Part shown: positions 345 through 7,674 of the stretch, piece after piece
Position numbering within the stretch: the first letter of the stretch is position 1
Layout of the letters: each line of letters begins with the position of its first letter
From: a bacterium CG2_30_54_10
GTDB lineage: Bacteria; Muiribacteriota; Ozemobacteria; Ozemobacterales; Ozemobacteraceae
Length of the DNA stretch: 7,674 nt
Reading direction: 5' to 3'
Assembly: GCA_001872985.1 (NCBI GenBank)
Contig: MNYA01000468.1
Location: 1-7,674 of the forward strand
Notes under the pieces: generated by a model
What the model was told of the DNA's origin: nothing
Databases searched by the model: none
The model's input: only the letters and a program-made list of their open reading frames with translations
Program-made: the position numbers and the translations under genes

Positions 345-1091
345 TCATTTTCCGGTTTCCTCTTTTTCTCGGCGAAGCCGGAAAAACTCTTTGTAAACAC
401 TTAAAAGTTCCGGGTCATTCGATGCCTGGGCACATTCGAATGCGGTTCGGCCGACGCCGTCCCTGCGGTTGGGGTCGGCATTTTTGCTCAACATGAGGCC
501 GGCTACGATAGCCGCATTTTTTCCAATTGCCCGATGCAAAGGGGTCGAACCGGAAGCATCGGCGGTGTTTGGGTCTGCACCCAGGTCAAGAAGTGTTTTT
601 ACCAACCCATACACCCCCTGCCGCGCTGCCAGATGCAGAGAGGTTTCCCCCAATGCGTTGGGTTCGTTTACTGAGGCTCCGGCGGAAGCAAGCCTCTGAA
701 CGACGTCGAGAAAGCAGACTTCCATGCCTTCGGGCACCGCCATTCCGAAGCAAAGAGGCTGGACATTTGCAGCCCAATGCAGGGGGGTATTCCCGTTCTG
801 ATCTCTGAGGTGTGCATTAGCGCCATGTTTCAGTAAAATTTCGACGAATTCCTTCGACCCGAGTCCGGCAGCATAATGCAATGGGGAAATGCCTTTTGAG
901 TCGGTGGCATTGACGGTTTCAGGTTGGATGTCTACGATCTGAAGAAGGCGCTTCATATCGAGGCTCTGGACTGCAACATGGATTGGATCGGCCGAAACCT
1001 GGCCACATACAATCAGCAGCAGTAGCAACAGCGGCAGCCGCGGCAGCCGAAAGGTTCCAAGGTCTTTTCGGACTTTGTACAAAGCTGTCAT
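345..1091 (-). CDS. Secreted ankyrin-repeat protein
   Basis: A 248-residue protein that starts with a Sec signal peptide: basic residues at 6-18, a poly-Leu core at 19-28, and a likely cleavage site VSA|DP at 34/35. The mature part is almost entirely ankyrin repeats. There is a degenerate first unit (about 35-65), then repeats at about 66-97, 99-145, 147-178 and 180-211, and a partial C-terminal unit (213-237). The consensus PLHxAA and LLxxGADxN signatures are visible, for example PLHYAA (70-75), PLHWAA (103-108) and SLHLAA (151-156). The second repeat carries an insertion of roughly 15 residues containing two Cys (about 110-126). Ankyrin repeats are binding scaffolds, so a periplasmic or exported protein-protein interaction role is likely; no enzymatic domain is seen. 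The start at 1091 was chosen because the ATG overlaps the upstream stop codon (TAATG) and begins the signal peptide. A longer upstream ATG at 1310 lies inside the preceding gene and lacks a signal peptide. Confidence 0.9.
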   Translation of the reverse strand: MTALYKVRKDLGTFRLPRLPLLLLLLIVCGQVSADPIHVAVQSLDMKRLLQIVDIQPETVNATDSKGISPLHYAAGLGSKEFVEILLKHGANAHLRDQNGNTPLHWAANVQPLCFGMAVPEGMEVCFLDVVQRLASAGASVNEPNALGETSLHLAARQGVYGLVKTLLDLGADPNTADASGSTPLHRAIGKNAAIVAGLMLSKNADPNRRDGVGRTAFECAQASNDPELLSVYKEFFRLRREKEETGK

Positions 1092-1924
1092 TATTGGGGT
1101 GTCCCTGACGCATTTTCCAGGAAGATGACGGGGGATTGGGGCGTCATGTCGACGCCCGGCAAAGGAAGTTCCCTTCCGTTGGCTGGGGGAATACCGGACT
1201 CGGGCGCAAACTGGTCTTGAAGGAAAAGCCCATGAACGCCGGGTTTCACGGACTCGAAGAACATTGCTACGGGTCTGCTGTTCCGCTTTTCCATTCTTTG
1301 CAAAAAGCATCCGAGCGGGGTCATGATGACCTCGGATAAAACGGTCGGAGAAACCTCAAACTCGTCCAGGAAAACAGTTTGGCCCTGCTGATCCAGAATT
1401 TTTACGAAGATTTTTGCCTTTTCTTTCAGCACCAGCCGCACGCAGGCCCACAGAAAAAACACCCCGTCGACGAGGTCGATCTCCTCAGTTTCCGGGTCTT
1501 TCACCTGGATGAAAGCAGTGTAGGACGCCTGCACAGACCGGGCCGCACGCACCAAGCCTTCATGATCGTCCAAGGAAAGCCCTGGCTGCCAGAGAAAGCC
1601 GGCCTGCGAAGCGGGCCAAGCAGTCTCGATCGCCTCTTCGAGAGCGGAACGCTCTGGCCCAGCGGTAATAGGAGCAATTCTGCCATCAAAACAACCGGCA
1701 AAAAGGATTTTCCCGGGGGCCTTCCCCGTGTTCGAAAATTCGGTTTCGAGTTGGCGGCGGCATTGGAACATTCCATCAGCAAGGGCATACGAAACCAGGG
1801 AACTTACGGACCCTTTCTTCGCGGCAATAACCCACTCATGCGGCAGCAAATCGCATGCGCCGGCAAGAATTGAAATGGGAAAAAATGCGATGAGAAAAAC
1901 CAGCATTCGTTTCAGTAAAATCAT
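1091..1924 (-). CDS. Secreted protein of unknown family
   Basis: A 277-residue protein beginning with a clear export signal: basic residues K5-R6 and a hydrophobic core at 7-20. It could be cut by signal peptidase I after AGA (23/24). C24 follows LAGA, which is only a poor lipobox, so a lipoprotein is possible but not favoured. Residues about 31-52 (WVIAAKKG...LADG) look faintly like an ankyrin helix pair. Residues 72-191 are alpha/beta in pattern, with strands around ILFAGC (73-78), YTAFIQV (135-141), VRLVL (162-166) and KIFVKILD (171-178). That pattern is loosely reminiscent of TolB/CsgG-type lipoprotein folds, but I do not recognise a family. The tail (225-277) is Pro-rich. Start choice: ATG at 1924 is the first to give a signal peptide, with AGGGA 11 bases upstream; the ATG at 2002 adds 26 non-signal-like residues. 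It overlaps the ankyrin gene by one base, implying co-translation and perhaps a shared job. Confidence 0.82.
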   Translation of the reverse strand: MILLKRMLVFLIAFFPISILAGACDLLPHEWVIAAKKGSVSSLVSYALADGMFQCRRQLETEFSNTGKAPGKILFAGCFDGRIAPITAGPERSALEEAIETAWPASQAGFLWQPGLSLDDHEGLVRAARSVQASYTAFIQVKDPETEEIDLVDGVFFLWACVRLVLKEKAKIFVKILDQQGQTVFLDEFEVSPTVLSEVIMTPLGCFLQRMEKRNSRPVAMFFESVKPGVHGLFLQDQFAPESGIPPANGRELPLPGVDMTPQSPVIFLENASGTPQ

Positions 1925-1982
1925 GTATGTTTTTTTCCCTGGAAAAGAACGGACCTGAATCTGGATGGCATTCTTAACACGA

Positions 1983-1994
1983 TTCAAGCTTGAA
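1983..1994. promoter_or_regulatory. 12-bp perfect palindrome in the leader of the secreted-protein operon
   Basis: TTCAAGCTTGAA is a perfect inverted repeat. It lies about 15 bases downstream of the predicted -10 box and 58 bases upstream of the start codon. Its position would suit an operator for a dimeric regulator, but no second copy was noticed, so this is only a candidate. Confidence 0.25.
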
Positions 1995-2008
1995 ACTGGC
2001 ATTCCGTG

Positions 2009-2038: not shown

Positions 2039-2054
2039 CTGGAGTCTGGTTGGC

Positions 2055-2082
2055 AAAAAAAAACTCCCCGAAGGGGGAGTTT
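2055..2082 (-). terminator. Intrinsic terminator of the large RNA gene
   Basis: On the minus strand a perfect 9-bp stem, AAACTCCCC (2082-2074) with GGGGAGTTT (2069-2061), is closed by a four-base CTTC loop. It runs into an uninterrupted T-tract down to 2055. There is no comparable T-tract on the other strand, so the terminator acts in the minus direction. It defines the 3' end of the non-coding gene and insulates the downstream operon. Confidence 0.93.
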
Positions 2083-3168
2083 CATGAACTAAAAAGAGTT
2101 GAGTGACCGATACAAGGACAGCGAACTGGTTCACCTTACTGAAGGCTATCGACACAAACAGATCCGATTCGTCACCGTCACGGAAAACCTTCCTGTGGTT
2201 ACCTGCCTTCTAGAGTTTTAACACGGCTGCGCTATGACGCACATTGGTTACGACAAGCCTCAGACGTTCATTTTCGCCCTCGAGGCCCTTGCACAACCGC
2301 CAAACATCGGCTTGCGCCTTCTGCTTTCTATCCTCTTCTAGGCTTTGGCCCACTTCAAGGACTGAACATGTCTACACCGGATGGGTACCGGCACCTTCTT
2401 AGGTTTCTTCCCTTTCAGCGCCATCATCGCCCGGCATGCTAATCGGGCTTCCAAACCCGACGCTCCCTGTCAATAGGTTTTCGCAACCTCCTTACAGGTA
2501 ATTACGCCCGCAACGACTCGCAGGTCTATTCCACCCTACAGGCACTCCTAGGGTCTGGCCTCCAGAGAACAAAACATGGATGATGGGGAATTGTCTCCAA
2601 CCCACCGGCTCCCGCGTCGTTATCTGCCCTTCATGGGTTCCTTCCACGCGATATAAGTGACTCCCGATCACCTGACCACCGGGCTCTACGCTTTCGATGA
2701 TCCTACACCACGCGGCCCCTATGCTGTCTTGTAACAGCCGGCTCCCATCTTGAGCTTGGACCGACCTCGGAGCATTGCTCCCAACCATGCCTGCCTCTTT
2801 CGCGACGAAGCTTCACCCCCACCGCGCGAGCGCGTCTCTCATGGCCTTTCTCTCTTTCAGGGCTTCACTCACCGACGGCCCTGGGCCTAAGCCCTCCCCC
2901 TTGCGGGGTTGGACCCCCCCTAGGGTTCTTCTGCCACCGGAGATGGCGAACCGCGAACGGAACGCCTTCCCTCTTGGAGTTTTTGCCTTCTGACTCGAAC
3001 TTCTTCTTTGGACTGCGGGATACCGAGGTTATTGATTCCCTTTGGGGACCGAACAATTGTCACCAACTGCCAGAAACCCGCTATGGACTCCCAAGCTAGA
3101 CCGACCGGAGTTAGGAAGTTCAAGCCTTTCGGCTACCAGTTCGCTTTTCAAAGAATCGATCACTCAAC
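2055..3168 (-). ncRNA. Large structured non-coding RNA, ~1.1 kb, unrecognised class
   Basis: A transcript of about 1114 nt runs from a near-consensus promoter to a strong terminator and carries no credible open reading frame on either strand. Its ends pair. Bases 3168-3156 (GUUGAGUGAUCGA) form 13 pairs, one of them U-G, with 2110-2098. Bases 3144-3135 (GCGAACUGGU) form 10 Watson-Crick pairs with 2130-2121. Bases 2990-2985 (GAAGGC) pair with 2146-2141. A side domain is closed by 3123-3115 with 3003-2995. Local hairpins include GCC-GAAA-GGC (3133-3124), CCCC-GCAA-GGGG (2908-2897), GGC-GCAA-GCC (2318-2309), and a UUCG-capped stem at 2966-2945 (GGCG and CCG segments separated by U-U mismatches). 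Other stems are AACCCA/UGGGUU (2639-2634 with 2604-2599), ACCCUA/UAGGGU (2554-2549 with 2538-2533) and CCUGU/ACAGG (2498-2494 with 2470-2466) enclosing AGGUU/AACCU. Size and architecture resemble giant ornate RNAs such as OLE, GOLLD and ROOL. I do not recognise it as any of them, nor see signatures of rRNA, RNase P, tmRNA, SRP RNA or intron domain V. Function is unknown. Identification as a structured RNA gene is strong; class membership is open. Confidence 0.9.
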
Positions 3169-3174
3169 ACGGTT

Positions 3175-3222
3175 AGTATAACCAAAGGAATCGAATCTGT
3201 CAAGGAATTTTTTTATTTTTTT
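3175..3222 (-). promoter_or_regulatory. Strong sigma70 promoter with UP-like element driving the large RNA
   Basis: A perfect consensus -35, TTGACA (3203-3198), is followed by an optimal 17-bp spacer and a -10 of TATACT (3180-3175), 5 of 6 to consensus. An A-tract-rich segment (3222-3206 on the minus strand) sits directly upstream of the -35, where an UP element would bind the RNA polymerase alpha subunit. The expected start, seven bases past the -10, is G3168. That is exactly the first base of the RNA's 13-bp closing helix, so promoter and RNA predictions support each other. This promoter predicts very high constitutive expression. Confidence 0.93.
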
Positions 3223-3309: not shown

Positions 3310-6300
3310 TCAGAAGGTAATGACCATCTTGGCGTTGGCGACCAGGGCCTCATATCCGTTTCCAGAAAGGCTTGCGGTGGCTTTGACCTTCTTGATTTCG
3401 CCATCCAGCATGGTATCCATGCCGATTATTTGGGAAAAAGTCAGGCCACCCTCGAACTTGCTTCCAGGTCGTTCGCTTTCTATTTTTGTGTGGGTAAGAA
3501 AGAAACGGTATCTCTGGTTGCGAGCTTCCGGCGTCAAAACTAATGCTGCGCGAGTTTCCCATTCCTTGCTCGGCTGTTTAAACGTGATGACGTTTCTTTG
3601 AACCCCGGCTTCGAGAGTCGCACGTCGGGAAAAGATTCTCTGAAAATCCATTGATTTGCTGAGAGTCCGCTTGTCGTTATCATTTGTATAGATGTCGTTT
3701 TCATCGCGATCTTCGACTTTCGTGTCCAGTACATATCCTTCCCTGATCTCGTGACGGACCTCCAGGCGCTTGGCGGAATCACGAAGTTCATTGACCAGAA
3801 CGCGGTTTCTGGAAACCCCCTGCTCGTATTCAGTCGAGACTTTGAGCCGCCGCATTGGGGTGAATCGAACTTCATAGGTCTCACGATCGTTGAAGGAAAC
3901 GACCAACTTGGTTGCACGATCTTTCAGATCCCGGCGCTTCCAGTCGAAAAACGTTTCTATGGCTTCACGGGGCTGGTAATTCAACGAGAAATTGGATGTG
4001 CTCTTCTGAACCGGGTTCTCGAACCGGCCGATTACCTCCTCCTGATTGTGGGTCTCCAAGGGCAAACTTGGAGGAAGTTGGTACTTCGTTGGATCGAGAG
4101 TCGCATCACGAAGAACTTTCGAGGTGTTTTCGATTTTGTATTTGAACTGTGCCCGAAGATCGCGATTTGGCTGATACTGGAACCGGGAGTCGGCGATCTG
4201 TGAATCCTGTTTGGACTTGGCAAGGAAATCTTCCTCGGTCCTCCATTGGAAAATTCCCCGCGTGCTCAAGACCCTGTTTGGATCGTAGTTCATGTCCAGA
4301 GTATAGTTGCGAGTGTCGGAACGAAGTTGATTTGGATCCAAATCATCGTCAACGCTGATCTTGCCCGCCCCGACGGACCACTTGAAATTTTTGCTCTTGT
4401 CCATTCCAATCGAGGTCTGCATCTGAAGCACCTTCGAACCAGAGGAGCTGTTCACCGCATCCGAGTATTGGGTGTGTTCGAGTTTGGATTGAGAGTAGAT
4501 CGAGCCAAAATCGTGATCCCAAACCACAGCTCCCATATCGCGGCCGCGGTCCAAATGGGTCAGGAGGCCTTCCTCACGGTCGGCTTGAACCCCATAACGG
4601 GCTTCAAGCTTGGATTTTGGTTTGAATTTCCATGAAACTCCCCCCGTCTTTTCGCCGAACTTGATGGTCGGGATCAGCTTGTCATCCGATAGGTTCGTTC
4701 GAGACTGCTCGAGGGTTCCGAAGGCATCGACGGTTGGCCGGATTTTGTAAGTTAAGCGGCCGGAATCTTTCAGAATATCGTTTACAAGACCGCGTTCACC
4801 TAGCTCGGTAACGCCACTTTCCCTGCCAACCAGCTTGAAATCTTTGCCAATCCGCTTCATGGAGATTTCCCCGTCGAGGCGTTCACCTTTCGCCTCGAGA
4901 CTCAAGCGTGATGCATGATCCTTTATCAACTGATCCTGCGGGGAAGCTTCACTCTTGATGTTCGGATCAAGCATGGAAAGGGCGGTTTCGCCGGCCAGCT
5001 TGATCCATTTTCCGAATGTCCAGTTTGCATCGAGGCCAAGGATCTGATGTTCCATGGGACGCACCGTTCCTGAAGCCTCGGTATCGCCTTTGGGGATTGT
5101 GTCATCCGCCTCCCGCAGCCAGGTAAAGCCTATCCGACGGCCTTCGTCGCGTTGGTTTACCAGGCGAAGACCGAGAAGATTCCTTTTAAATGCCAGTTTT
5201 GAATCGGTCACTTCGTATTCAGCGACGATCCAACTTGTGATTTCAACCGGAAGGATATGCGGGAGGAGTTTTACGATGCCGTCTTCGTAATCGATCAGAT
5301 AGTCGGTTCCGCGGCTCAAGACACGGCCGTCGATGCTGATGTGTTCTGAATTCTGTACCACAGGCTGGCCTTTGAGCCGAAACTCCTGCTGCTGCCCGGC
5401 TCCCCGGAACTGCTCGCGGCGGGCCTGGCCTTTCGATTGGGAGAAAAGGAACGTTCCCTGCCATGCGGGACTGAATCCGCCCTGAGCCATGATTCCCCGA
5501 ACTTCCTTTTTGAAAAGGGTGAACTCGGTATCGGGAATGGCGACCGGGAAATCGCCCATAGTCAGGTTCCAGAGCGGGCCATCGACGTTGATGGTAAAAC
5601 GTCTGTCTTCGTCCTCCTTGTCGTCAAGAACCGCATTGACACGGGCGGAGTGGGTAATGTTCCCATCTATCTCGAGATGCAGACTCTGATCGAGTCTGAA
5701 GCCCGGTATCGATTCGTAGTTTTCGGTTGAAAAGTGGCCGATATCGCCTTTCACATTGGCTTTTTTCATTTCGAAGGTCTTTGTTCCAGAGATGTCCAGC
5801 TTTTTCTCTTTGTCGGATGGTTCATCAAGCCAAGGCTTTGATGAGGCTTTGGCCGGATCTTTAGAATCTTCATTTGAGATTGAAGCAGGAACAGACGGAC
5901 AGGCCAGAATGATCGATGAGGAAGCAGGCGACATCAGGGTGGTCGATTTATGCGCAGTAGACTTGGGCGCAGAAGGCTTGAGCGCAGTAGACGCGGGCGC
6001 GGAAGGCTTGAGCGCGGAAGGCGTAGGCGCCGTAGGCGGCTTAGATACGGCTAATGTTGGTGCGACAAGCTTAGGTGCGGCAGGCTTGGCGGCAGGCTTT
6101 TTTTGCATAACCGGCTTCGCTTTTATCGGAACACCTATTGCTGAGAAATTCGGGGATGACGAATCCGGGCTGAAGCCTTCGGTCAGCCGGGGAGGCAGCG
6201 GGTCGAAGAACCTGGGCGGGCGCCCCATTCCTTGCGTTTTTGAAAGAGGGCGGGTTCCCGAAGCCCCGGCCGCCGAAACTTCACCGGTACCGGCAAACAA

Positions 6301-6390
6301 AGCCAGAACCGCCAGGCACAGGCATATTGCAAGGGCTCCCGGGGGGGAACGCACGCGAAGAGATGAGCTGAAAAAATTAAGGGAGTTCAT
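3310..6390 (-). CDS. Predicted outer-membrane beta-barrel protein with Pro/Ala/Lys-rich N-terminal linker
   Basis: A 1026-residue protein. Residues 1-40 form a long signal peptide with basic residues (R12, R14), a hydrophobic core at 19-33 and a likely cut at VSA|AG (40/41). Residues about 88-170 are low-complexity (Pro, Ala, Lys, Ser, Thr) in irregular 7-11 residue units such as ALKPSAP, a likely extended periplasmic spacer. From about 198 to the end the sequence alternates polar and hydrophobic residues in many beta-strand-like segments rich in Tyr, Phe, Trp, Arg and Asp, and the last residue is Phe, the usual signal for BAM-mediated insertion. The segment GTDYLIDYEDGIVKLLP (361-377) resembles a short motif found in SprA-like and other large surface or outer-membrane proteins, but the family is not identified. 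The start at 6390 gives the signal peptide and a 4-bp ATGA overlap with the recombinase gene; an upstream in-frame ATG (6540) lies inside that gene. Substrate and function are unknown. Confidence 0.85.
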   Translation of the reverse strand: MNSLNFFSSSLRVRSPPGALAICLCLAVLALFAGTGEVSAAGASGTRPLSKTQGMGRPPRFFDPLPPRLTEGFSPDSSSPNFSAIGVPIKAKPVMQKKPAAKPAAPKLVAPTLAVSKPPTAPTPSALKPSAPASTALKPSAPKSTAHKSTTLMSPASSSIILACPSVPASISNEDSKDPAKASSKPWLDEPSDKEKKLDISGTKTFEMKKANVKGDIGHFSTENYESIPGFRLDQSLHLEIDGNITHSARVNAVLDDKEDEDRRFTINVDGPLWNLTMGDFPVAIPDTEFTLFKKEVRGIMAQGGFSPAWQGTFLFSQSKGQARREQFRGAGQQQEFRLKGQPVVQNSEHISIDGRVLSRGTDYLIDYEDGIVKLLPHILPVEITSWIVAEYEVTDSKLAFKRNLLGLRLVNQRDEGRRIGFTWLREADDTIPKGDTEASGTVRPMEHQILGLDANWTFGKWIKLAGETALSMLDPNIKSEASPQDQLIKDHASRLSLEAKGERLDGEISMKRIGKDFKLVGRESGVTELGERGLVNDILKDSGRLTYKIRPTVDAFGTLEQSRTNLSDDKLIPTIKFGEKTGGVSWKFKPKSKLEARYGVQADREEGLLTHLDRGRDMGAVVWDHDFGSIYSQSKLEHTQYSDAVNSSSGSKVLQMQTSIGMDKSKNFKWSVGAGKISVDDDLDPNQLRSDTRNYTLDMNYDPNRVLSTRGIFQWRTEEDFLAKSKQDSQIADSRFQYQPNRDLRAQFKYKIENTSKVLRDATLDPTKYQLPPSLPLETHNQEEVIGRFENPVQKSTSNFSLNYQPREAIETFFDWKRRDLKDRATKLVVSFNDRETYEVRFTPMRRLKVSTEYEQGVSRNRVLVNELRDSAKRLEVRHEIREGYVLDTKVEDRDENDIYTNDNDKRTLSKSMDFQRIFSRRATLEAGVQRNVITFKQPSKEWETRAALVLTPEARNQRYRFFLTHTKIESERPGSKFEGGLTFSQIIGMDTMLDGEIKKVKATASLSGNGYEALVANAKMVITF

Positions 6391-7280
6391 TTTCCTCGTG
6401 GGTGCGACCTGCCGTGAATCTCCTTGAGATCGTTGGATGTGAGATGTGTGTAAATCTGCGTCGTGGCAATATCCACGTGTCCCAGCATCTCCTGAACAAC
6501 CAGAATTCCGGCCCCACCTTCGAGCATGTGGGTTGCGCATGAGTGGCGAAGGGCATGGGGTGAAAGTTGGCGGGTAATTCCGGCTTTCAACGCATATTTG
6601 CGAACTATTTTCCAGACCCCCATCCGCGAGAGTGGTTTTCCCTGAAGGTTCAAGAAAAGAGCCCGCTGGGTTATATTTCTTACGAGCAGATGGCGGCCTT
6701 TCAAAAGAAACTCGTCGACCGCCGCCAAAGCAAAACCCCCGACAGGAAGAACCCGCTCCCGACCGCCTTTTCCGACGACAAAAAGGAATTCGCCCTCACG
6801 ATGCAGGCTTCCCATTTCCAGCCCGATCAACTCAGATTCGCGGATACCGGTCGCATAGAGAATCTCGAGTATTGCTTTGTCCCGCAGCCCGAGGGGGGTT
6901 GCTGGAAAGGCTTGTCCGAGAAGTTTATTAACTTCGGAAATTGAAAAAAACCTGGGAAGAGGCCGGCCGATCTTGGGGCGTTGGATAACACGGGTCGGAT
7001 CCTCGGAAATCCGACCTTCACGAAGAAGAAAGCGGAAAAAACCTCTCAAGGCCGAAGCCTTACGTGCTATCGACCTTGAAGCCAGGCACTGATCGTGCAA
7101 CTGAACCATGAAAAGAGTGATCGGAGTTTCCAAACCTGGTTCGATTGGACTCCGCATTTTTCCATCAAGAAAGTTCAGAAAGTCCTGAAGATCTTTTCTG
7201 TATGCTTCCAAGGAATTAGGCCGCAGACCTTTCTCGATGGAAAGGTAGGCCATATACTGTTCGAGGATTTCGGTCTCCAT
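6387..7280 (-). CDS. xerD: Tyrosine recombinase, XerC/XerD family (XerD-like)
   Basis: A 297-residue site-specific recombinase of the family that resolves chromosome dimers at dif. The N-terminal SAM-like DNA-binding domain spans about 1-90 and the catalytic domain about 110-297. All catalytic residues are visible: R147 (ATGIRESE), K171 (VGKGGRER), H242 and R245 (PHALRH), H268 (LGHVD) and nucleophile Y277 (QIYTHL). Length and residue spacing closely match the ~298-residue E. coli XerD, and the C-terminal HPRGK resembles the XerD tail. Start choice: the ATG at 7280 is preceded by AGGAG with five-base spacing. An in-frame ATG at 7295, with GGAG seven bases upstream, would add five residues. Its stop overlaps the next gene's ATG. 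No dif site or partner xer gene is in the window, so a role other than dimer resolution (mobile element or integron-like) is not excluded but is less likely given the canonical length. Confidence 0.93.
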   Translation of the reverse strand: METEILEQYMAYLSIEKGLRPNSLEAYRKDLQDFLNFLDGKMRSPIEPGLETPITLFMVQLHDQCLASRSIARKASALRGFFRFLLREGRISEDPTRVIQRPKIGRPLPRFFSISEVNKLLGQAFPATPLGLRDKAILEILYATGIRESELIGLEMGSLHREGEFLFVVGKGGRERVLPVGGFALAAVDEFLLKGRHLLVRNITQRALFLNLQGKPLSRMGVWKIVRKYALKAGITRQLSPHALRHSCATHMLEGGAGILVVQEMLGHVDIATTQIYTHLTSNDLKEIHGRSHPRGK

Positions 7281-7285
7281 TTGCG

Positions 7286-7290
7286 CTCCT
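7286..7290 (-). promoter_or_regulatory. Ribosome binding site deciding the xer start
   Basis: AGGAG lies five bases upstream of the ATG at 7280. A second GGAG (7306-7303) precedes the alternative ATG at 7295 by seven bases, so two nested starts are both plausible. The shorter one gives the family-typical length. Confidence 0.55.
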
Positions 7291-7413
7291 GACATTTCTG
7301 TTCTCCATGTATCGGAAAATTGGAGAGAATCCCGAACGAGGGTGCGCGGGGACGCTGGTAACTTCTCAATTAGTCCGGGCAAAAAAGTCGGTTTTTTAAA
7401 AGTTGGTTATCAC

Positions 7414-7482: not shown

Positions 7483-7507
7483 AAAATTTTCCGGGGTTAT
7501 TGAAAAG

Positions 7508-7652
7508 TGGTAAGAGTTTAGCGGTTTGAAATAAGAAAGACGAAGAAAGCTGGGGAAACGAAAAAATAGAAAATTAAGGAAAGGATTTTTTTGCCGCAGA
7601 TAAACGCGGATTAACGCAGATCTGGAGGGGAAGGAAAGAAAGTAAGAGTTTA
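7508..7652 (-). repeat. Dispersed ~140 bp intergenic repeat, copy B (inverted relative to copy A)
   Basis: This is the second copy of the element at 14-154, in opposite orientation. It has the 52-bp identical core at 7576-7627 and the 18-bp identical end at 7508-7525. GTAAGAGTTTA occurs at both borders in direct orientation (7510-7520 and 7642-7652), 132 bp apart, and a variant GTAAGTGTTTAGC follows at 7654-7666. The boundary motif may therefore be part of a longer tandem arrangement continuing off the window. With the palindromic element next to it, this accounts for the 394 bp upstream of the recombinase; no gene is seen there. Confidence 0.8.
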
Positions 7653-7674
7653 GGTAAGTGTTTAGCCTGCTGAA

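What the first reader, a model, noticed from the sequence alone, without database searches (positions are those of the whole stretch)
2055..3168. A 1.1 kb structured RNA gene of no class I can recognise
Between two protein operons lies a stretch without credible coding capacity, bounded by a consensus promoter and a strong intrinsic terminator on the same strand. It is dense in hairpins with stable tetraloops. At about 1114 nt it would be among the largest non-rRNA structured bacterial RNAs; OLE, GOLLD and ROOL are, from memory, about 600-900 nt. No hallmark of rRNA, RNase P RNA, tmRNA, SRP RNA or group I/II introns was found by eye.
Basis: partly seen in the sequence, partly recalled or inferred. 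Interest (0 to 1): 0.95.

Follow-up and report, generated by a model that had tools for sequence, protein, structure and literature searches.

The report
New giant five-armed bacterial RNA
A 1.1-kilobase gap between two genes of an uncultured Riflebacteria bacterium carries the gene of a predicted noncoding RNA that matches no family in the Rfam catalogue, keeps its predicted base-paired shape through matched base changes, has relatives in at least three bacterial phyla, and likely serves as the core of a large RNA-based particle whose job is still unknown.

Summary
The minus strand at about 3168-2052 has a near-consensus promoter, no conserved reading frame, an intrinsic terminator, and no match in Rfam (4227 families). 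Homologs occur in 23 of 24 genomes of its family (Ca. Ozemobacteraceae, Riflebacteria), in three other Riflebacteria families, and in genomes of two further phyla. In 19 full-length homologs 166 of 249 predicted pairs change on both sides and stay paired; in 21 diverse sequences of the 3' arm, 38 of 44. The ends pair, closing a six-way junction with five arms. A model of the 3' arm also matches upstream arms, so arms arose by duplication. Model hits per genome are mostly one, but 6-7 in one genus. RNase P RNA lies elsewhere; no phage, plasmid or viral-contig match; no neighbour gene is constant. Most likely it works in trans as the structural core of an RNA or RNA-protein particle, like OLE, ROOL and GOLLD but unrelated in sequence. 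A new structured RNA class: about 0.97; the scaffold mechanism: about 0.5, inferred. No expression data. An alignment-wide covariation test found nothing; the test limited to predicted pairs found 32 of 227.

The parts
3175..3203 (-). promoter TTGACA-17-TATACT
   Evidence: 11 of 12 consensus bases; TTGAC at the same place in 19 of 19 homologs (read)
2052..3168 (-). predicted RNA gene, about 1.1 kb including terminator
   Evidence: start inferred from promoter position and helix P1
3155..3168 (-). 5' arm of closing helix P1
   Evidence: 93% complementary to 2098-2111; end-swap test
2098..2111 (-). 3' arm of closing helix P1
3135..3144 (-). 5' side of helix P2 (pairs with 2121-2130)
2121..2130 (-). 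3' side of helix P2
2985..3133 (-). arm D1, with a GNRA loop in 19 of 19 aligned sequences
2853..2978 (-). arm D2; model R3 of arm D5 matches 2834-2996 (24.7 bits, E 8.5e-5)
2557..2846 (-). arm D3; model R3 of arm D5 matches 2607-2774 (38.9 bits, E 1.3e-8)
2410..2553 (-). arm D4 (model R2 matches 2408-2555)
2134..2403 (-). arm D5 with the ladder helix modelled as R1 and R3 (2186-2362)
2060..2083 (-). intrinsic terminator hairpin, T run at 2052-2059

Best explanation
The minus strand at 3168-2052 carries a promoter-to-terminator unit without a conserved reading frame, with relatives in at least three bacterial phyla and with matched base changes in its predicted helices, that is predicted to be transcribed into a roughly 1.1-kb noncoding RNA and likely works in trans as the structural core of a large RNA or RNA-protein particle. 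Shown by calls: consensus promoter and terminator, no coding signal, compensatory changes in predicted pairs, complementary ends, a predicted closed six-way junction with five arms, significant matches between arms, several dispersed copies in some genomes, RNase P RNA and tmRNA at other places. Inferred: that it is transcribed and stable; that the arms arose by duplication; that the ladder arms (short helices separated by purine-rich internal loops) and GNRA loops give repeated docking surfaces for protein or for other copies of the RNA; that the product is a particle rather than a catalyst or a regulator.
For: Own promoter and terminator; no coding signal; 166 of 249 pairs with two-sided change; 32 of 227 predicted pairs significant with 0 in each of six slid controls; 38 of 44 pairs with two-sided change, 236 such cells against 73.5 in shuffles and at most 40 in slid versions; complementary ends that fit their own partner better than swapped ones (mean -30.0 against -16.7 kcal/mol, 0 of 10,000 permutations as low); related arms (32 of 32 secondary matches of model R3 lie inside the RNA and on its strand); R3 in 29 of 39 genomes of the phylum and 2 of 342 others and in 2 of 5 genomes of the phylum of G216; no neighbour gene shared by more than 10 of 30 loci, which argues against a cis role; no phage, plasmid or viral-contig match. 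By analogy: OLE, ROOL and GOLLD form RNA-only homo-oligomers (PMC12286853, abstract and passages).
Against: No transcript, particle or partner protein has been seen. The covariation test over all column pairs found 0 significant pairs. RNAalifold chose its pairs partly by covariation, and A6 was fitted to model R1, so lean towards the structure. In the end-swap test 5 of 14 representatives had at least one foreign 3' end that paired as well. Invariant purine-rich loops would fit a ribozyme as well. Most genomes outside the phylum lack it (340 of 342, with filters that lose weak matches), and 10 of 39 inside the phylum gave no match.
Confidence: 0.5

Rival explanations
1. It is a new large ribozyme: the invariant purine-rich loops form an active site and the related arms are its peripheral scaffold.
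For: 162 invariant columns in the 19-sequence alignment, 111 of them A or G; size and intricacy; own promoter.
Against: No resemblance to a known ribozyme family in Rfam; no sign of processing or of a substrate; not testable here.
Confidence: 0.2
2. It is a trans-acting regulator, for instance a decoy or sponge for a protein (as 6S RNA is for RNA polymerase, from memory), with related arms as repeated binding sites.
For: Matches between arms; independent transcription unit; several copies in some genomes.
Against: Far larger and more constrained than regulators that I know of (recalled); no protein named.
Confidence: 0.15
3. It is a mobile or selfish RNA element that spreads its own gene, which would explain dispersed multiple copies.
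For: 6 and 7 R3 hits in G031 and G038; 8 of 12 blastn matches in G031 end within 7 bases of a contig end, as near-identical repeats do; a group II intron lies beside one copy.
Against: One R3 hit in most family genomes; the same upstream gene beside it in 7 of 30 loci points to inheritance by descent; no phage, plasmid or viral match; no transposase looked for at each copy.
Confidence: 0.1
4. It is a decayed or disguised coding region, or a variant of a known housekeeping RNA (rRNA, RNase P RNA, tmRNA).
For: A 316-codon stop-free stretch on the opposite strand in L002 and L003.
Against: That stretch is not open in the other 17 aligned homologs; 35 of 376 indels are multiples of three; Rfam negative; RNase P RNA over cut-off in 23 of 24 family genomes and tmRNA over cut-off in 16 of 24, at other places (G000 itself has only weak tmRNA matches).
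Confidence: 0.01

Closest known systems
OLE RNA (ornate, large, extremophilic)
   Same: Large intricate RNA of unsettled biochemical role; chromosomal; forms an RNA-only dimer and a ribonucleoprotein (PMC12286853 passages; PMC9723947 and PMC12054373 abstracts).
   Different: About 600 nt against about 1.1 kb; mostly Bacillota; no covariance-model match to the window.
GOLLD RNA
   Same: Large ornate RNA of unknown function; forms a nanocage (PMC12286853, passages).
   Different: [quoted passage not shown] here no phage match, chromosomal contexts, no covariance-model match.
ROOL RNA
   Same: Large ornate RNA that forms an RNA-only nanocage (PMC12286853, passages). Shared style only.
   Different: No covariance-model match; different hosts (recalled).
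Ribosomal RNA genes (only as to copy behaviour)
   Same: In genus g19 many dispersed copies that break assemblies; ends closed by a helix (recalled for rRNA precursors).
   Different: No similarity in Rfam scans.

Membership tests
OLE RNA | match to the Rfam covariance model | tested here: not met
   all Rfam families, none at E below 0.04
OLE RNA | OapA protein gene nearby | not tested
   no search for OapA was made; the two window neighbours scanned have no Pfam family that says so
OLE/ROOL/GOLLD-like homo-oligomer (mode of action) | RNA-only multimer | not testable with these tools
   needs cryo-EM or mass photometry
GOLLD RNA | match to the Rfam covariance model | tested here: not met
GOLLD RNA | phage-borne | tested here: not met
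   no blastn match in 50,697 phage records; 0 viral contigs with the D4 motif
ROOL RNA | match to the Rfam covariance model | tested here: not met
RNase P RNA (class A) | match to RF00010 | tested here: not met
   the genome's RNase P RNA is at G000:C366:15100-15469
tmRNA | match to RF00023 | tested here: not met
   over cut-off at other places in 16 of 24 family genomes
group II intron | match to an Rfam group II model | tested here: not met
   the tool does find a neighbouring group II intron in L101
protein-coding gene | conserved reading frame, indels in threes | tested here: not met
   35 of 376 indels are multiples of three; no frame shared by the 19 homologs; no consistent codon phase in five pairs

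The most novel reading that the evidence does not exclude
A so far undescribed class of giant cellular RNA with members in three bacterial phyla, assembled by duplication of a ladder-like arm into a five-armed, end-closed molecule that forms a large (perhaps ribosome-sized) RNA particle with a housekeeping role, and kept in some lineages in many near-identical copies as rRNA genes are.
Probability: 0.35. Interest if true: 0.96.

Novelty: categorically new. Interest (0 to 1): 0.88.

Why it matters
Few non-ribosomal structured bacterial RNAs of this size and intricacy are described (OLE, ROOL, GOLLD), and the papers seen here call their roles unsettled or unknown. A chromosomal 1.1-kb class in at least three phyla, with enough covariation to draw its secondary structure and with arms that match one another, adds a system in which the purpose and origin of giant RNAs can be tested, and a large natural target for RNA cryo-EM and structure prediction.

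Tried and rejected
Rfam at strict and permissive thresholds: only chance-level matches in the window. Coding explanation: rejected. Replacement of RNase P RNA or tmRNA: rejected. Phage, plasmid or viral-contig origin: no match; the viral-contig scan used one degenerate motif of arm D4 only and the other two were blastn with the window's RNA, so divergent relatives there are not excluded. Covariation over all column pairs: 0 significant pairs; the narrower test was run afterwards and both are reported. R-scape itself was not available. A cis-regulatory role: rejected because of the terminator and changing neighbours. A constant partner gene: relatives (573-1395 aa) of the window's 1076-aa protein (3310-6540; no Pfam family; 35.5 bits to SprA against a cut-off of 200) end within 308 bases upstream of the RNA in 7 of 30 loci, not elsewhere. 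Literature: six paper searches. Riflebacteria with noncoding RNA gave 0 papers; none of the listings seen describes this RNA. The library holds open-licence papers only, and no preprint server.

Left out before counts: L020 (a 28-base, terminator-only match) from all alignments; L003, L009, L013 and L014 from A3 and A4, and L019 from A4 because it lacks most of arm D4; internal arm copies were kept out of A6 by choice of loci and threshold (one search used 20 loci). One search used 24 f1 sequences (19 of A1 plus five). One search used 14 of the 23 end pairs collected. One search used 38 loci.

Full report
OBSERVATION. The window is contig C511 of genome G000. On its minus strand a TTGACA-17-TATACT promoter at 3203-3175 and a 10-pair terminator at 2083-2060 enclose about 1.1 kb without a credible gene. 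The two ends are complementary, 3155-3168 with 2098-2111. Rfam finds nothing significant: best E 0.29 for the window and 0.044 for the stretch alone, the same chance match at 19.2 bits against a gathering score of 46.7.

HOMOLOGS IN THE FAMILY. blastn found the unit in 20 of 56 genomes searched, own genome included, all in its family; one of the 20 (G020) is a 28-base terminator match and was dropped. Nineteen sequences were aligned over the gene (A1: 1197 columns); 162 columns are invariant and pairwise identity is 47.5-97.5%, median 62%. Covariance model R1, of the ladder helix in arm D5, matches 23 of 24 family genomes, 20 of them above 100 bits. A degenerate motif of arm D4 found 22 stretches in the genome-contig collection: 17 of 22 titles name Candidatus Riflebacteria, Ozemobacter, Ozemobacteraceae or Rifleibacterium; the other five say Erysipelotrichia, Methylomirabilis, or only bacterium. 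The first two belong to contigs with the lengths of family contigs G023:C583 and G008:C51, so I take those titles to be mislabels. The same motif gave 0 in viral contigs.

DEEPER RELATIVES. A second Riflebacteria family (G031, G038) has 12 and 11 blastn matches, 69-94% identical to one G031 copy apart from a short opposite-strand match. A third family (G027, G032, G034) has one main match each. A fourth (G028) has a piece at a contig end. Outside the phylum, model R2 of arm D4 found G216 among 381 genomes, and R1, of a different arm, matched just 3' of it at 57.4 bits. Model R3, built from 21 diverse D5 sequences including that of G216, found 31 of 381 genomes: 29 of 39 Riflebacteria and 2 of 342 others, G216 and G210; and 2 of the 5 genomes held for the phylum of G216, one of them G381, which was not in the model. 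G210 is not among those 5, so I count it as a third phylum. In G216, G381 (two copies) and G210, R2 and R3 match in the same order, with 56-139 bases between them against 46 in the window; the ends pair and the units are 1001-1102 bases. E-values of my models are rough because calibration is short.

STRUCTURE. RNAalifold on A1 gives 249 pairs, 166 with at least one two-sided change; its energy is -232.2 kcal/mol against -103.8 for the reverse complement. My covariation test with a tree-keeping null found 0 significant pairs when all column pairs were tested. Limited to the predicted pairs it found 32 of 227 at E <= 0.05 on 24 sequences, with 0 in each of six slid controls, and 21 of 254 on A1, slid controls 0, 0, 1, 0, 0, 0. 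On A6, 38 of 44 pairs have two-sided changes, 236 such cells against 73.5 in shuffles and at most 40 in slid versions; A6 was fitted to the model, which favours it. Helix P1 is supported separately: over 14 representatives the own-end duplex averages -30.0 kcal/mol and swapped ends -16.7, with none of 10,000 permutations as low; in 9 of 14 no foreign 3' end did as well. Layout: P1, P2, then arms D1 3133-2985, D2 2978-2853, D3 2846-2557, D4 2553-2410 and D5 2403-2134, a few bases apart: a closed six-way junction with five arms.

RELATED ARMS. R3, a model of D5, also matches D3 (38.9 bits, E 1.3e-8) and D2 (24.7 bits, E 8.5e-5) in the window. Over 38 loci (272,545 bases) it gave 38 primary and 32 secondary matches; all 32 lie inside the RNA and on its strand, 26 of them at E <= 0.01, in 23 of 38 loci (bounds). 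Fifteen of the 38 loci have none at that level. The arms share short helices separated by purine-rich internal loops. Duplication of an ancestral arm is the simplest reading (inference).

NOT CODING, NOT A KNOWN HOUSEKEEPING RNA. Indels are multiples of three in 35 of 376 cases, and five sequence pairs show no consistent codon phase. RNase P RNA is over its cut-off at other places in 23 of 24 family genomes, tmRNA in 16 of 24; the own genome, 67% complete, shows only weak tmRNA matches.

CONTEXT. Relatives of the window's 1076-aa protein end within 308 bases upstream in 7 of 30 loci, so part of the family seems to keep the locus by descent; elsewhere neighbours differ. In one copy of G038 and one of G381, two phyla, the RNA abuts genes of a molybdenum hydroxylase ([2Fe-2S] subunit, Mo-cofactor subunit, MobA-like transferase) in different orientation: a lead, possibly chance. 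R3 matches per genome: 1 in most, 2 in G005, 3 and 4 in G014 and G018, 6 and 7 in G031 and G038. In G031, 8 of 12 blastn matches end within 7 bases of a contig end, as near-identical repeats do in assemblies.

MECHANISM. An independent transcription unit, large, closed at its ends, with related arms, a GNRA loop kept in 19 of 19 sequences (arm D1) and no constant partner gene is best explained as a trans-acting structural RNA: the core of a ribonucleoprotein or a homo-oligomer. OLE, ROOL and GOLLD form RNA-only homo-oligomers (PMC12286853, abstract and passages). Steps shown: gene unit, covarying fold, matches between arms, distribution. Steps inferred: transcription, particle formation, function. 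Odds: scaffold 0.5, ribozyme 0.2, regulator 0.15, mobile element 0.1.

NOVELTY. No Rfam family, and no description in the listings of paper searches (open-licence PMC papers only). It resembles OLE, ROOL and GOLLD by analogy and matches the Rfam model of none of them.

Noticed in passing
L142:12042-16507 and L163:3384-8443: A molybdenum-hydroxylase gene set ([2Fe-2S] subunit, Mo-cofactor subunit, MobA-like transferase) abuts one RNA copy in each of two phyla, in different orientation.
   Followed up: partly
window 3310-6540 (-): A 1076-aa protein without a Pfam family (weak SprA-like match below cut-off); relatives end within 308 bases upstream of the RNA in 7 of 30 loci.
   Followed up: partly
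window about 1-165 and 7500-7660: By eye the two ends of the contig carry an inverted repeat, probably a dispersed repeat at which the assembly broke.
   Followed up: no
window 6387-7382 (-): Phage_integrase-family recombinase, XerC/XerD-like by its domains; a related protein lies upstream in three other loci.
   Followed up: no
window 345-1310 (-) and 1091-2002 (-): Ankyrin-repeat protein and a 303-aa protein without a Pfam family, downstream of the RNA.
   Followed up: no
L101:9494-9766 (-): A group II intron lies just downstream of one RNA copy in G031.
   Followed up: no
L126:5270-5357 (-): A selenocysteine tRNA gene lies about 1.1 kb beyond the RNA in G027.
   Followed up: no
L055, L061: Public contigs titled Erysipelotrichia and Methylomirabilis have the lengths of contigs of Riflebacteria family genomes G023 and G008: likely mislabelled assemblies.
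   Followed up: partly
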